Assembly (NCBI GenBank): GCA_948560485.1
Contig: CAOXUF010000108.1
Coordinates: 1 to 6,900, forward strand
Direction of reading: 5' to 3'
Origin: an uncultured Eubacterium sp.
GTDB lineage: Bacteria; Bacillota_A; Clostridia; Lachnospirales; Lachnospiraceae
Length of the DNA stretch: 6,900 nucleotides
Shown: positions 1-6,900 of the stretch, piece by piece
How the letters are laid out: the number at the start of each line of letters is the position of its first letter
How positions within the stretch are numbered: position 1 is the stretch's first letter
Notes under the pieces: model-generated
What the model was told of the DNA's origin: nothing
Databases searched by the model: none
The model's input: only the letters and a program-made list of their open reading frames with translations
Translations under genes and position numbers: made by a program

Positions 1-1402
1 ACATATTGGAATGCCGAAAACAGGAACAACAGCATTGCAAAGTTTTTTATTCAACAATAACAGTTTGTTAAAAAAATATGGTTGGTGTTATCCGGTATTA
101 GAAGATGCTGAATCGGGATATTGGAACCGGTGGTCAGCAGAAAGAAACGGAAATGGATACAAATTGCATGCTGATTGGATCATAAATGGTATGAAGCCGG
201 AATGGGATAAAGGAATGGGGATTGTTTTAAGACATTTGGAAGAGAAAAATGTTGTCTTATCAGCAGAGAATATTTATGGGATTGGGAATAGCAAGTTTAT
301 TGCAGATGCTAAGGACAAATATGAGAATATAAAAGTAGTTGTTTATCTCAGGCGTCAGGATAGAGCTATAGAGTCATTATACAGCCAGAGAATTAAAAGC
401 GGGCTTGAGTATGTGGAATATTATAAACCATATAATACTTTTGAGGAATTTGTTGAGTCATATGTTGTTTCTGGAAATTTTTTAGAATATTTATGCAAAC
501 TGGATTTAATAAGCCAAATAGTTGGGGAAGAGAATCTTATAGTCAGAATATATGAGAAGCAGCAACTTATCGGAAATGATACGATTACAGATTTTATGTC
601 TGTTCTTGGAGTACCAACAGATCAGGTTGATTGGAAAAGAAAAGAAAAAAATGCTTCTCTTGGAGGAAACTATTTAGAGATTAGCAGATTGATCAATTCT
701 GTTCAGAGTATTGATAGCTGTGTGGGAAACAGAGATGAGATATTGAGTTGGTGTGATGAAGAAGTAAGGCATGATTTTTATAATGTCTGTACAGGATTAT
801 CAGGTATATTTAATCAAGATAGGGGAGAACATGGATTTTTCACAGTGGAGGAAAGGAAGGAGTTTCTTGAGAAGTTTGCACCAGATAACGAGCAGATAGC
901 AAGAAAATACCTGAACAGAGAAGATGGGATCTTGTTCTATGATGACAGAATGGATTATCCTTTATATGATATAAATCAAAGTAGTGGATTTGAGGAAGAT
1001 ATGGTTCGCGTTTTTACGGCCGTGATGCATGCCCAGGGTCAGAGACTTGCAAACTTGATTGAAAAAACTTCGCAGGAAGTTATTGGAAAGTTAATTATGA
1101 GGGATGTTTATCAAAAAAGGAAAGACCGAAAGCTGCTGCTTTTTGGTGCAGGGCGTAACTGCCGAAAATTATTTGATATAGTCGGAAATCTTCCGTGTAC
1201 GTTGATTGTTGATAATGATTTGACAAAACAAGGAACGGCTATACATGGGGCACAGGTGAGCCATACGGAAGATATCGTAGATTGGAAAAAATATTATATT
1301 ATTGTGACTTGCCATGTTACAGGAGAGATTGAGCAGCAATTGGATAACTATGGCCTGAAAAAGGAAGAAGATTATGTTCTCATGAGAGAATATGGGGTAT
1401 AG
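1..1402 (+). CDS. Sulfotransferase-like protein with C-terminal Rossmann-like module (5' partial)
   Basis: Probable PAPS-dependent sulfotransferase acting in the cytoplasm on a glycan or glycan precursor; the acceptor is unknown. The frame is open from base 1. Codons before the ATG at 11 read His-Ile-Gly, matching the HIGMPKTGTT block that sits about 16 residues inside the downstream paralogue, so the true start lies upstream and roughly 16 residues are missing. Numbering from the Met at 11: the PKTGTT loop (residues 2-7) fits the 5'-phosphosulfate-binding loop. YLRRQDRAIESLY (112-124), with Arg114 and Ser122 eight apart, fits the 3'-phosphate-binding motif. The LSAEN stretch near 83-87 may hold an acidic catalytic residue (inference). 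Residues 373-463 form a separate module with FGAG (378-381) and a DND (401-403) after the second predicted strand. No signal peptide or membrane segment is seen. The next gene, 8 bases on, is a close paralogue. Class is fairly sure; substrate is not. Confidence 0.8.
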   Translation, partial: HIGMPKTGTTALQSFLFNNNSLLKKYGWCYPVLEDAESGYWNRWSAERNGNGYKLHADWIINGMKPEWDKGMGIVLRHLEEKNVVLSAENIYGIGNSKFIADAKDKYENIKVVVYLRRQDRAIESLYSQRIKSGLEYVEYYKPYNTFEEFVESYVVSGNFLEYLCKLDLISQIVGEENLIVRIYEKQQLIGNDTITDFMSVLGVPTDQVDWKRKEKNASLGGNYLEISRLINSVQSIDSCVGNRDEILSWCDEEVRHDFYNVCTGLSGIFNQDRGEHGFFTVEERKEFLEKFAPDNEQIARKYLNREDGILFYDDRMDYPLYDINQSSGFEEDMVRVFTAVMHAQGQRLANLIEKTSQEVIGKLIMRDVYQKRKDRKLLLFGAGRNCRKLFDIVGNLPCTLIVDNDLTKQGTAIHGAQVSHTEDIVDWKKYYIIVTCHVTGEIEQQLDNYGLKKEEDYVLMREYGV

Positions 1403-1405
1403 GGG
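1401..1405 (+). promoter_or_regulatory. Ribosome binding site for the GTG-started second sulfotransferase
   Basis: AGGGG lies five bases before the GTG at 1411 and shares its first two bases with the TAG stop (1400-1402) of the preceding gene. The overlap of stop codon and binding site suggests translational coupling of the two paralogues. It supports the GTG start, because no ATG with a comparable site precedes the conserved HIGMPKTGTT block. Confidence 0.6.
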
Positions 1406-1410
1406 TAAAA

Positions 1411-2820
1411 GTGATAGATAAGATAGACGGTGCTAATACATTATTGATACACATAGGAATGCCAAAGACAGGAACAACATCTTTGCAAAATTTTTTATAT
1501 CTCAATAACGGTATATTAGAGGAATATGGATGGTGCTATCCGGTTTTGATGGATGGTGAAATGGAATATTGGAAACAGTGGGAACTGGAAGGCAGTGGGA
1601 ATGGGTACGATTTGTATGACTATTTGATAATAAGTAATGTAAAATCTGAATGGGATAAAAGAATGGATATTTCTCTGCGATATTTGAAGGACAAGAATGT
1701 TATCCTGTCGGCAGAAAGTATTTATGAATTTGAAGGGGATAAATTTATAGCGGCTGTTAAAGAAAGATATGCAAAGGTTAAAGTGATTGTATATTTAAGG
1801 CGGCAGGATAGGGCTATAGAATCTTTGTATAATCAACGAATCAAAAACGGAACAGAGCATCGTACATTTGAAGAGTTTATTGGTTCGGATGGAATTCCTC
1901 CCAACTTTTTAGATTATTTATTTAAGTTAAATTCGATAAGTAAGATAATCGGAAAAAGTAATTTGATTGTCAGGATATATGAAAAGCAGCAACTTGTTGA
2001 TAACGATACGGTTATGGATTTTTTGTCTGTTCTTGGAATACCGTTAGATAGGAACAATTGGGAAAGAAGTTCCATGAAAAATATATCTTTAGGAGGGAAT
2101 TATTTAGAGATTAATAGATTGACCAATTCTATCCGAGGCATGGAGAGTCATATGAGTGAGGACGAGGGAATTGACTGGAAAGTTAAATCCGATTTTAGAG
2201 ATATTTGTGCAGGATTGTCAAACTTATATAACAAAGATCAAAAGGAATGTGGTTTTTTCACAATGGATGAAAGGGAAAGATTCTTGAGGAAATTTGTGGA
2301 AGACAATGAACAGGTGGCAAGAGAGTATTTGCATAGGGAAGAAGGAATCTTGTTTTATGATGATAGGATGGATTATCCATTATATGAAATAAATCAAAGT
2401 AGTGGCATTGAAGCAGATATGATACGTATATTTACAGAAATGATATATGCTCAAGCTCGTAGGATCACAAATTTGGTTGAAAAGATGTCCAGAGATGTGA
2501 TTGGGAAGTTCATGATGAAGGATGTTTGGCAGAAAAGTAACAATAGGAAATTGATGCTCTTTGGAGCAGGGTATAATTGTCAAAAGTTAATTGATATTTT
2601 GGGAGATATTTCCGGGGTTTCGATTACTGACAATGACAAGGAGAAGCAGGGAATGGTTTTTAGAGGAGTAACGGTAAGCTATGCTAAGGAAATAATGGAT
2701 TGGCTGAAATATTTTGTTATTGTTACTTGCCAGAAAACAGAAGAGATTGAGAAACAATTGAGCGGTCTTGGGTTGAAAAAGGATAAAGATTATGTTCTTT
2801 TGAAGGAATATGGCTTATAA
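1411..2820 (+). CDS. Sulfotransferase-like protein with C-terminal Rossmann-like module (tandem paralogue)
   Basis: Complete 469-residue paralogue of the preceding gene, probably also a PAPS-dependent sulfotransferase. The GTG start is supported by an AGGGG site and gives a short leader before the first strand (TLLIHIG, 10-16). PKTGTTSLQ (18-26) fits the 5'-phosphosulfate loop. YLRRQDRAIESLY (128-140), with Arg130 and Ser138, fits the 3'-phosphate site at the classic eight-residue spacing. LSAES (99-103) matches the paralogue. A block at 312-332 is almost unchanged between the copies. Residues 378-469 form the extra module, with FGAG (384-387) and DND (407-409). Compared with the first copy it lacks about 7 residues after the RIKNG stretch and about 4 near residue 220-250, so the copies diverge in what may be acceptor-facing loops (inference). 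No PAPS synthesis genes are in the window. An alternative is a sulfotransferase-fold protein with another acyl- or phospho-group role, which I think less likely. Confidence 0.82.
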   Translation: MIDKIDGANTLLIHIGMPKTGTTSLQNFLYLNNGILEEYGWCYPVLMDGEMEYWKQWELEGSGNGYDLYDYLIISNVKSEWDKRMDISLRYLKDKNVILSAESIYEFEGDKFIAAVKERYAKVKVIVYLRRQDRAIESLYNQRIKNGTEHRTFEEFIGSDGIPPNFLDYLFKLNSISKIIGKSNLIVRIYEKQQLVDNDTVMDFLSVLGIPLDRNNWERSSMKNISLGGNYLEINRLTNSIRGMESHMSEDEGIDWKVKSDFRDICAGLSNLYNKDQKECGFFTMDERERFLRKFVEDNEQVAREYLHREEGILFYDDRMDYPLYEINQSSGIEADMIRIFTEMIYAQARRITNLVEKMSRDVIGKFMMKDVWQKSNNRKLMLFGAGYNCQKLIDILGDISGVSITDNDKEKQGMVFRGVTVSYAKEIMDWLKYFVIVTCQKTEEIEKQLSGLGLKKDKDYVLLKEYGL

Positions 2821-2838
2821 GAATTTGGAAAGCTTATC

Positions 2839-2845
2839 AAGGGAG
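2839..2845 (+). promoter_or_regulatory. Ribosome binding site deciding the glycosyltransferase start
   Basis: AAGGGAG lies six bases before the ATG at 2852. The only in-frame upstream ATG, at 2810, overlaps the previous gene's end and has an AAGGA just two bases away, too close for efficient initiation. The 2852 start also places the VTIVIPAYN strand at residues 6-14, as is usual for family 2 enzymes. Confidence 0.6.
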
Positions 2846-2851
2846 AGACAT

Positions 2852-4156
2852 ATGGATGGGGATTTGGTAACGATAGTCATTCCGGCATACAACGCAGAGC
2901 AGTTTTTATGTGAAAATGTGGAAGCAGTTTTGAATCAGACATATACGAACATGGAAATAATATATATATGTGATGGATGTACAGATCATACAGTGGATAT
3001 ACTGAGGGGGTATGCAAAGAATGATTCCAGAATCATCATACGAGTCGAGACAGAGAATCGTGGAGCCGCCGCTGCCCGTAACGTTGGTATAAGTATGGCA
3101 AAAGGGGAGTGGATAGCTTTTTGGGACGCAGACGATTTGGTGGAATTAAATGCAATAGAGGAAATGGTTAACGCTGCGGTGAAGGAACATGCTGACCTTG
3201 CATGTTGCTATTGGGAATATTTTGATGATATACCCAGTACAGATAGTGTGTTAGACGATTGGATAAAAAAATTATATTGCAGTACATATCCTGTTATTAA
3301 TACGGAAAAAGAGCTTCACCATATTATGCAGCTTGTGACCACGGTGCCATGTACCAAGCTTATCCATAAATCTCTATACACAAAAAAGGATATTTTTTTT
3401 CAGGATATCCCCAATGCAAATGATGTTTTCTTTTCGAAAGTTGTAACCATAAATTCACATAAAATAATTTATGTTGATAAAGTGTTTTATCATTACAGAA
3501 GCAATAAAGGGAGACATACACTTTCTACAGACAGAGATACAAGGAAAAGCTATCTGTTTGCGGCATATGATAAAATATATGAGCATATCAAATTGAAAAA
3601 GAACAATCTGCTCTTAGTTAGAAGTTTTTATAATGATGTCATTACTAACTTGAATATTTATTTAGGCGATCCAGGATATGATGTACTTTTTGATAGTCTG
3701 AGGAATGTCTATTTACAGAAATGGGGAATGCAGGAAAATGAAATTATAGGGGAGTTAAGCAGTATAAACAGAGTATTTTATAAAAATATAATTAGTGGAA
3801 ATAAGAATATTAATCTGCAGGAAATTTATATACAGGCTAAGGTAGAATTTGTAAGAAATTTGTCATGTAAGGGTTGTTCTGTTTGGGGAATAGGAGAAAT
3901 TGGCAGCGCATTGTTAAAAGAGATATCGAAGACAGATATAAATATACAACATGTATTTGATTCAGCACAGGATAAATGGGGGAAGAAGATATATGGATAT
4001 GTAGTGGAAAATTTTAATAATGTTCAGGCTGATCATATTGTTATTACCACACCCCAATTTTTCGATGAGATTGTGGAGAGGATTGGGAGCAATGTAAGCA
4101 ATATTTATAATTTAGAAAAGCAGATATGGTTGATACCAGATGGTTTAACGGTGTAG
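2852..4156 (+). CDS. Family 2 glycosyltransferase with C-terminal Rossmann-like module
   Basis: Probable inverting GT-A glycosyltransferase that transfers a sugar from a nucleotide-sugar donor to a growing surface glycan at the cytoplasmic face of the membrane. From the 2852 start it is 434 residues. VTIVIPAYN (6-14) is the first strand, CDGCTD (40-45) stands where NDGSTD is usual, and NRGAAAARNVGI (69-80) is the conserved donor-binding stretch. FWDADD (90-95) carries the metal-binding DxD. NANDVFF (188-194) sits where many relatives have an Glu-Asp pair, so Asp191 is the likely base (inference). A variable region follows, then a module at 339-434 with VWGIGEIG (344-351) and VFDS (368-371) that resembles the ends of both preceding sulfotransferase-like proteins. 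A longer form from ATG 2810 would add 14 residues and overlap the previous gene by 11 bases. No membrane segments are seen. Donor and acceptor cannot be told from the sequence. Confidence 0.88.
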   Translation: MDGDLVTIVIPAYNAEQFLCENVEAVLNQTYTNMEIIYICDGCTDHTVDILRGYAKNDSRIIIRVETENRGAAAARNVGISMAKGEWIAFWDADDLVELNAIEEMVNAAVKEHADLACCYWEYFDDIPSTDSVLDDWIKKLYCSTYPVINTEKELHHIMQLVTTVPCTKLIHKSLYTKKDIFFQDIPNANDVFFSKVVTINSHKIIYVDKVFYHYRSNKGRHTLSTDRDTRKSYLFAAYDKIYEHIKLKKNNLLLVRSFYNDVITNLNIYLGDPGYDVLFDSLRNVYLQKWGMQENEIIGELSSINRVFYKNIISGNKNINLQEIYIQAKVEFVRNLSCKGCSVWGIGEIGSALLKEISKTDINIQHVFDSAQDKWGKKIYGYVVENFNNVQADHIVITTPQFFDEIVERIGSNVSNIYNLEKQIWLIPDGLTV

Positions 4157-4189
4157 CATCGTGTATATGTAGGGAAAGGAAGAAAAAGG

Positions 4190-5893
4190 ATGTGTGGGAT
4201 TCTTGGCGGAAATAATTCTCGGTGGGATTATAAAAAAGGGATAGAAAGCATGTCGCACCGTGGGCCGGATGGCATAAGGATTGATTCAATGGAGGATTTT
4301 ACGCTTGCTTTTGCCCGGCTGGCAATTATTGATTTGTCGGTTAATGGCATGCAGCCCATGTTTTCTATTGATGGACAAGTCGGAATCGTGTTTAATGGTG
4401 AAATATATGGGTATCAGAAATTAAAAAAGGAATTAGAAAAAAAGGGATATCGGTTTCGGTCAACTACGGATACAGAAGTAATATTAAATGCATATATTGA
4501 ATGGGGAGAAAAATTTGTCACAAGGGTAGACGGCATGTTCGGAATGGCGATATACGATAAAAGAGACGGCATGATTAGACTGTTCCGCGATAGGGTAGGG
4601 ATAAAACCATTATATTACTATTATGATGGTGTTAATTTTGGATTTTCATCTGAGCTCAAAGGTATTGTTAATATGTGCAATACGGTTTCTTTACAGGTTG
4701 ATTATACAGCGGTTTATGATTATTTGAACTATATATACATACCAGAGCCAAAGACGTATTATAAAAATGTATATAAAATGCTTCCGGGACATCGTGTGAT
4801 ATTTGATATAAAATCTAAGCGTATCGTTAAAGATTCGGATTATTGGAAGTTAAATGTAAATTCAAATCAAGCATCAGAGCGAAAACAGAGCGATATTGTG
4901 GAAGAGTTAAAGGAACTGATAAAAGTGTCTGTGCGCGAGCAGATGATTGCTGATGTTCCGGTAGGTACTTTTTTAAGTGGCGGGGTAGATTCCAGTATTA
5001 TCACTTATGAAGGATATAAGATTAATCCTCTGTTGGAATGTTTTTCAATGGGATTTACGCAAAGGGATTATAATGAATTACAGTATGCCCGAAAATTAGT
5101 GGAGCGGTATAAGATAAATTGGAATGTAAAAGTGTTTGACCGTGACATTTTTCTAGAGCATTATAGTCGGTTAAAAGATTGGTATGACGAACCATTTGCG
5201 GATTCTTCGGCGTTTCCAACATATATTGTTTCTAAAATAGCGAAGGAAAAGGTTACGGTAGTACTCACAGGTGATGGCGGTGATGAGATATTTGGCGGAT
5301 ATGACAGGCATAAAGCAATATGGCAGAAAGAAAAAGACCAAGCGCCGGATAATTTACTCCTTTCATATGTGTACAGTAAACTCCATAAAAATGGATTGGA
5401 TCACTATTGGATGGATGAACTGACATTTATATTAAGGGATATTTGTGGCATTCCGCGGCCAAGTGATAAAGAACTTAGGAAACAGTTTGGGATTCCAAAA
5501 GATTATGACATGTTTTGGAAATTCCGACAGTATTATTTCAAAGATTTACCGCCAATGACCAGAACTCAATATTTGGATTTAAAAACATACTTACCGGGAG
5601 ACGTTTTAACTAAGGTAGACAGGGCAAGCATGGCTGTCTCGTTGGAAGCCAGAGTACCGTTTTTGGCAAGAAGAGTAGTGGAATTTTCCTTTTCATTATC
5701 TGAAGAAGACAGGCTTCCCAATGGGGTATTAAAAGGGGTGCTAAAAAAGGCCTATGAGGAAGAAGTTGGAAAAGCCATACTGTATAGAAAAAAAATGGGG
5801 TTTTCTATGCCGTACAATTTTTTCAAGGAAGGGGAGTTACCGGAAGCGCAACTGTTAAAAGATCTTTGGGGAAAAGACATAAAGGGGGATTGA
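4190..5893 (+). CDS. asnB: Glutamine-hydrolysing asparagine synthetase / AsnB-type amidotransferase
   Basis: Cytoplasmic amidotransferase: an N-terminal glutaminase frees ammonia, and the C-terminal domain adenylates a carboxylate with ATP and amidates it; classically aspartate to asparagine. Met1 is followed by the nucleophile Cys2 (MCGI), which fixes the start, and AAGGAAG at 4176-4182 sits seven bases upstream. Glutaminase residues visible: HRGPDG (23-28), Arg43 in ARLAIID, NGE (69-71) and Asp94 in STTDTE. Synthetase: the PP-loop SGGVDSS (263-269), GDGGDEIFGGY (361-371), and LPGDVLTKVDRASMAVSLEARVPFL (468-492). At 567 residues it is within the normal range for the family, and no key residue is missing. 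It lies between two glycosyltransferase genes. AsnB-like enzymes in polysaccharide loci are known to amidate uronic-acid sugars or other carboxyls, so the substrate here may be a glycan precursor instead of aspartate (inference). The symbol reflects family, not proven substrate. Confidence 0.93.
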   Translation: MCGILGGNNSRWDYKKGIESMSHRGPDGIRIDSMEDFTLAFARLAIIDLSVNGMQPMFSIDGQVGIVFNGEIYGYQKLKKELEKKGYRFRSTTDTEVILNAYIEWGEKFVTRVDGMFGMAIYDKRDGMIRLFRDRVGIKPLYYYYDGVNFGFSSELKGIVNMCNTVSLQVDYTAVYDYLNYIYIPEPKTYYKNVYKMLPGHRVIFDIKSKRIVKDSDYWKLNVNSNQASERKQSDIVEELKELIKVSVREQMIADVPVGTFLSGGVDSSIITYEGYKINPLLECFSMGFTQRDYNELQYARKLVERYKINWNVKVFDRDIFLEHYSRLKDWYDEPFADSSAFPTYIVSKIAKEKVTVVLTGDGGDEIFGGYDRHKAIWQKEKDQAPDNLLLSYVYSKLHKNGLDHYWMDELTFILRDICGIPRPSDKELRKQFGIPKDYDMFWKFRQYYFKDLPPMTRTQYLDLKTYLPGDVLTKVDRASMAVSLEARVPFLARRVVEFSFSLSEEDRLPNGVLKGVLKKAYEEEVGKAILYRKKMGFSMPYNFFKEGELPEAQLLKDLWGKDIKGD

Positions 5894-5897
5894 TGCG

Positions 5898-5903
5898 AAA
5901 GGA
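5898..5903 (+). promoter_or_regulatory. Ribosome binding site for the second glycosyltransferase
   Basis: AAAGGA lies five bases before the ATG at 5909 and four bases after the TGA stop of the amidotransferase gene. It supports 5909 as the start and tight coupling of the two genes. Confidence 0.6.
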
Positions 5904-5908
5904 ATATT

Positions 5909-6867
5909 ATGATTAAAACATCAGTAGTCATACCAGTTTATAATACAGGGATCTATTTAGAAGAGTGCATTGGCAGCGTTTACAATCAGACGCAAAGGGA
6001 GATCGAGGTAATTGCAGTTAATGATGGGTCAACAGATGATAGCTGGGAAGTTTTGCAGCATTTACAGGAAAAATATCCAGGCCTTATCATTGTGACACAA
6101 GATAATCATGGACAGGGGTATGCACGGAATGTTGGCATAAAAATGGCTAGAGGAGAATATATTTATTTTTTGGATTCTGATGATTATATTATGGAAGATA
6201 CATTGGAAAGCTGTTATGAGTGTGCTTCTAAAAATAAATTAGATATTGTTTTGTTTGATGCGCTTGAGTTTGAGGATTGTATCGAAAAAAAAGTAATTAA
6301 GCCAAATAATTGCGATAGACATGAAATTATTAAGGAGAGAATGGAGGTTTTTTCAGGTATATTTTTTTTAGAAAAATATTATAGGAAATCATATAATCCA
6401 GTGCCATGGTCAATGTACAGTTCTGCAGCATTTATAAAAGATAATGATATACGCTTTCTTACGGGAGTATATTTTGAAGATAATGAGTTTTACTGTAGAA
6501 TGATGACATTGGCAAAAAGGGTAATGTATATTCCGCAGATGTTTTATCAATATCGCTGCAGAAAAGATTCTACAACAGGATCGGGCTTTGATTTGAGAAA
6601 AGCGAGAGATCATATAGAAGTTATAAATGCGATGGCAGAGTTGAAGACTCTAAACAGAGAAAAAGGTTGGCATGCCATTAAAGAGATCAGCTTGAGTATG
6701 CTGTTGTATGTAACGAAAGTGTGTTATGAAAATAGTTTATATGATAAAGAGTATAGCTTGTTTGCAAAAATATTGGATACATGGAATAGAATATGTGGAG
6801 GTACGATAGAAGGTACAGATGACTTGGGGGATATAGATTATGTTTTCAATATATGCATATATTTCCC
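5909..6867 (+). CDS. Family 2 glycosyltransferase (3' partial, cut at contig end)
   Basis: Probable GT-A, inverting glycosyltransferase for the same surface glycan. The frame from ATG 5909 has no stop before the window ends; 319 residues are genomic, and codon 320 spans the junction with adapter sequence. SVVIPVYN (5-12) opens the domain, VNDGSTDDS (37-45) is the usual nucleotide-binding turn, and GQGYARNVGI (68-77) is the donor-binding stretch. FLDSDD (87-92) is the canonical DxD, and YFEDNEFYCRM (188-198) holds the likely Glu190-Asp191 catalytic pair. FYQYRCRKDSTTGS (212-225) is the usual region after it. All expected catalytic motifs are therefore present and in textbook form, unlike the more divergent glycosyltransferase upstream. 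The remaining C-terminus is unknown; whether it ends in the module seen in the first three genes cannot be judged. The frame stays open through 6868-6900, but those residues are artefactual. Specificity is unknown. Confidence 0.88.
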
Positions 6868-6900
6868 AGATCGGAAGAGCACACGTCTGAACTCCAGTCA
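6868..6900 (+). other. Illumina TruSeq 3' adapter sequence (assembly contamination)
   Basis: The final 33 bases match the TruSeq read-1 3' adapter without mismatch: the universal 13-mer AGATCGGAAGAGC (6868-6880) followed directly by ACACGTCTGAACTCCAGTCA (6881-6900). Base composition rises to about half G+C against an AT-rich neighbourhood. Translated in the glycosyltransferase frame it gives DRKSTRLNSS, a peptide tail well known in protein databases as adapter read-through. The first A at 6868 could by chance also be genomic. The bases should be trimmed, and the gene treated as truncated at 6867. Confidence 0.98.

What the first reader, a model, noticed from the sequence alone, without database searches (positions are those of the whole stretch)
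6868..6900. Untrimmed Illumina adapter forms the last 33 bases and fakes a gene C-terminus
The end of the window matches the TruSeq adapter over its whole 33 bases. It is fused in frame to a glycosyltransferase, so automatic annotation would give a protein ending in the artefactual DRKSTRLNSS peptide. It also shows that the window's right edge is a contig end, so nothing can be inferred about the downstream neighbour or the gene's real end.
Basis: partly seen in the sequence, partly recalled or inferred. Interest (0 to 1): 0.8.

Follow-up and report, generated by a model that had tools for sequence, protein, structure and literature searches.

The report
Leftover sequencing adapter fakes gene end
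The last 33 bases are a piece of synthetic sequencing adapter left in an assembly; they cut off a sugar-transferase gene and give it a false tail, so this is a known kind of data error and not biology.

Summary
Bases 6868-6900 equal the 33-base Illumina TruSeq read-1 adapter with no mismatch (about 1e-17 copies expected by chance). They sit in frame behind a family-2 glycosyltransferase gene starting at 5909. Its closest relative in the protein database, P0001 (451 aa), is identical at 319 of the first 320 residues and at 0 of the 10 adapter-encoded residues 321-330. The real protein therefore most likely runs about 131 residues further, into a separate C-terminal domain. It also occurs in 4 of 77 genomes of the nearest relative's genus. 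A contig end is very likely but not proven: the source contig was not found, and 2 of 126 adapter copies elsewhere lie inside contigs. The gene's real end can be inferred from relatives. Not a biological feature; an ordinary artefact.

The parts
6868..6900 (+). Illumina TruSeq read-1 (index-side) adapter, bases 1-33; synthetic, not genomic
   Evidence: exact 33/33 match; same string used as trimming adapter in PMC12678497 and PMC7474095 (passages)
5909..6867 (+). genuine part of a family-2 glycosyltransferase gene, 3' end missing (about 131 codons plus stop by comparison with P0001)
   Evidence: PF00535 E 1.5e-34; P0001 identical at 319 of 320 residues; full-length homologues
6869..6898 (+). 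false C-terminus DRKSTRLNSS encoded by the adapter (residues 321-330 of the open frame)
   Evidence: translation; 0 of 10 residues agree with P0001

Best explanation
Bases 6868-6900 are an untrimmed Illumina TruSeq read-1 adapter. Shown: the sequence is that adapter, and the coding sequence stops matching its closest relative there. The glycosyltransferase gene is truncated only in the data; in the organism it most likely continues for about 131 more codons, through a linker helix into a small Rossmann-like C-terminal domain.
For: Exact 33/33 match. P0001 (451 aa) agrees at 319 of 320 residues before the junction and 0 of 10 after it. A second relative, L121 (72% identity, Lachnospiraceae MAG), continues in frame to 451 aa. 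Of the 120 listed homologues (of 540 found), 97 are at least 430 aa long and none contains the adapter peptides searched for. In viral contigs, 120 of 121 copies of the 33-mer lie within 214 bases of the contig end they point at, 118 of 118 with a following base have C, and 52 of 62 with at least 24 following bases carry exact flow-cell sequence after an index. Three of those 121 stop exactly at base 33, as the window does. 4 of 77 genomes of L121's genus carry the 33-mer, and the reversed control pattern is found in 0 of 77. AlphaFold2 model of P0001: mean pLDDT 94.2; helix 322-343 and a strand-helix domain 354-442 lie wholly beyond the junction.
Against: The raw reads and the source contig could not be seen, so read-end-only coverage is not shown. 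The window stops at base 33 of the adapter, before the C and the index that would make the origin self-evident. Residue 321 is Asp in 13 of 18 aligned homologues (2 gaps, 2 Gly, 1 Asn), as the adapter frame happens to give, though the nearest relative, P0001, has Gly. 23 of the 120 listed homologues are shorter than 400 aa, and some of them (such as P0038 and P0039, 296-297 aa) lack the C-terminal part, so the family does hold shorter forms; none of those is the close relative.
Confidence: 0.99

Rival explanations
1. The adapter lies inside a longer contig: two genomic pieces were joined across adapter (or the window was cut from a longer contig at a round 6900), so the window's right edge is not a contig end.
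For: The window is exactly 6900 bases. L013 (viral contig of 5179 bases, adapter 1258 bases from the end) and L133 (adapter at 67862-67894 of a 99462-base contig of genome G045) show adapter plus index plus flow-cell sequence followed by further non-adapter DNA.
Against: 120 of 121 viral-contig copies and 4 of 5 copies in related genomes lie within 214 bases of the contig end they point at.
Confidence: 0.05
2. The 33 bases are genuine genomic sequence and the glycosyltransferase carries a different tail here.
For: The frame stays open through the 33 bases.
Against: Expected number of chance copies about 1e-17; G+C 0.52 against 0.36 for the window; the nearest relative differs at all 10 residues after being identical at 319 of 320; no stop codon is reached.
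Confidence: 0.003

Closest known systems
Illumina TruSeq adapter read-through left at contig ends
   Same: Same 33 bases, pointing outward; 120 of 121 copies found in viral contigs lie within 214 bases of a contig end, and 4 of 77 related genomes carry it.
   Different: Here the window stops at base 33, before the index; 3 of the 121 viral-contig copies also stop there.
Family-2 glycosyltransferases (PF00535) of polysaccharide-type gene clusters in Lachnospiraceae
   Same: 5909-6867 has the N-terminal catalytic domain and is 72% identical to the protein of L121, where the three genes GT2, asparagine synthase, GT2 stand in the same order.
   Different: Only that the 3' end is missing from the data; nothing unusual was seen in the part present.

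Membership tests
Illumina TruSeq adapter contamination | exact adapter sequence, correct strand (5' end of adapter towards the insert) | tested here: met
   33/33, begins AGATCGG at the insert side
Illumina TruSeq adapter contamination | homology to relatives stops at the adapter's start | tested here: met
   P0001: 319 of 320 identical before, 0 of 10 after
Illumina TruSeq adapter contamination | lies at the end of a contig | tested here: inconclusive
   lies at the window's end; the contig itself was not found
Illumina TruSeq adapter contamination | coverage beyond the junction comes from read ends only | not testable with these tools
   raw reads not held
Glycosyltransferase family 2 (PF00535) | Pfam profile above its curated cut-off | tested here: met
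   119.8 bits against 23.3

The most novel reading that the evidence does not exclude
The adapter bridges two pieces of genome inside a longer contig, so that what follows the window is a chimeric join rather than a contig end; technically worth knowing, still an artefact.
Probability: 0.05. Interest if true: 0.05.

Novelty: not a real feature. Interest (0 to 1): 0.04.

Why it matters
Only as data hygiene: a gene caller would report a 330-residue partial protein with ten artificial residues and without its C-terminal domain. The adapter's Asp at 321 happens to match the residue that 13 of 18 aligned relatives have there, so a homology search alone could place the junction one residue too late. 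The same adapter is found in many public viral contigs and in 4 of 77 related genomes.

Tried and rejected
Looking for the source contig: no whole genome is held for the window; the 35 bases before the junction (6833-6867, checked) have no exact match in viral contigs (one search had asked with one mistyped base and is void); no relative of the protein was found in viral contigs (5 stretches matched a pattern, none confirmed); no megablast match of 1-6867 in the phage or plasmid collections. A closer genome than L121's was sought in 77 genomes of its genus (42 of 77 had some match, the best 78% DNA identity in L121's own genome) and in 397 genomes drawn from its family (1 of 397 at E <= 1e-100, again L121's genome). 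Protein searches with two neighbouring genes gave near-identical proteins (P0121 with 1 of 567 and P0241 with 1 of 469 residues different; P0244 with 2 of 466 different) but did not identify the window's own contig. P0241's longest listed contig is 185731 bases; the tools gave no way to fetch it. P0244 is listed without a source and on a contig of 11146 bases; as it differs from the window at 2 residues I do not take that as the window's contig length.

Other adapters tested (TruSeq read 2, Nextera, small RNA, MGI read 1 and 2) are absent outside the last 33 bases: longest exact piece 11 bases. TruSeq read 2 shares its first 13 bases with read 1 and so matches 13 bases at 6868. A printed report of the adapter peptides was not found: 0 papers hold DRKSTRLNSS and 0 hold RSEEHTSELQS in the library searched. 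Searches for surveys of adapter remnants in assemblies were seen as listings with the openings of abstracts and gave nothing on point, so I make no claim that such surveys do not exist. PMC3441570 was read at one passage (adapter removal before assembly).

Full report
Observation. Window bases 6868-6900 are identical to the first 33 bases of the Illumina TruSeq read-1 (index-side) adapter. Its letters were recalled, then found in print as the adapter trimmed with cutadapt in PMC12678497 (the same 33 bases) and PMC7474095 (the same plus C), one passage of each seen. At the window's base composition about 1e-17 copies are expected. No other adapter tested is present beyond the 13 bases that TruSeq read 2 shares with read 1.

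Effect on the gene. The open frame from 5909 runs through the adapter and off the window, giving 330 residues ending DRKSTRLNSS. The part before the junction is a family-2 glycosyltransferase (PF00535, 119.8 bits against a cut-off of 23.3). The best database relative, P0001, is 451 aa long. It differs from the window at one of the first 320 residues (298, Gly in the window, Cys in P0001) and at all ten residues 321-330. Residue 320 is Pro in both, though its third codon base already belongs to the adapter. L121, a Lachnospiraceae MAG contig with 72% identity over residues 1-320, also encodes a 451-aa protein, and its GT2, asparagine synthase and GT2 genes stand in the same order as in the window. 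Of the 120 homologues listed (of 540 found), 97 are at least 430 aa and 23 under 400 aa. The short ones include forms that lack the C-terminal part (P0038, P0039), but the 19 best hits (P0001-P0019) are all 448-480 aa long.

What is lost. An AlphaFold2 model of P0001 (47-sequence alignment, mean pLDDT 94.2, pTM 0.88) puts residue 320 between helices 306-316 and 322-343; beyond lies a strand-helix domain, 354-442, with weak Pfam similarity to PF22674 and PF17836 (both below cut-off). So the adapter stands in place of about 131 residues, including a whole domain.

How it arose. The adapter points outward, with its first base next to the insert, as read-through from a short fragment requires. Where the locus held was only part of a contig, its range reaches the contig end on the adapter's side. 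Among the 80 loci listed, 63 are whole contigs with 64 copies, of which 63 lie within 214 bases of the end. In 77 genomes of L121's genus, 4 genomes hold 5 copies, 4 of them 12-15 bases from a contig end; the reversed control occurs in none.

Limits. Two copies, L013 and L133, lie inside contigs, so an adapter does not by itself prove a contig end. The window's contig was not found, and a length of exactly 6900 leaves open that the window was cut. Raw reads were not available. These limits touch the contig-end claim, not the identity of the 33 bases.

Verdict. The gene's end is missing from the data but can be inferred from relatives.

Noticed in passing
2-1402 and 1411-2820, + strand: Two adjacent genes encode proteins 58% identical (270 of 467 positions) with HIGMPKTGTT near the N-terminus, only sub-threshold similarity to sulfotransferase domains (PF00685, PF17784) and no Pfam or NCBIfam family at E 0.001. 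They look like a tandem pair of unclassified sulfotransferase-like enzymes.
   Followed up: partly
C-terminal ~100 residues of the proteins at 2-1402, 1411-2820 and 2810-4156, and of P0001 (intact relative of 5909-6867): Otherwise different enzymes (sulfotransferase-like, two glycosyltransferases) end in a similar small Rossmann-like module. Profile comparison of the C-terminal parts: E 3.3e-5 (P0001 family against sulfotransferase-like family), 1e-4 (P0001 family against the 2810-4156 protein, a profile of only 2 sequences), 0.014 for the third pair; the probabilities are modest (72, 58 and 3%). It may be a shared docking or regulatory domain of this cluster's enzymes (guess).
   Followed up: partly
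L133 (genome G045, contig C14, 67862-67894) and L013, 3889-3921: TruSeq adapter followed by index and flow-cell sequence lies inside a contig with further non-adapter DNA on both sides, which suggests chimeric or scaffolded joins in those public assemblies.
   Followed up: partly
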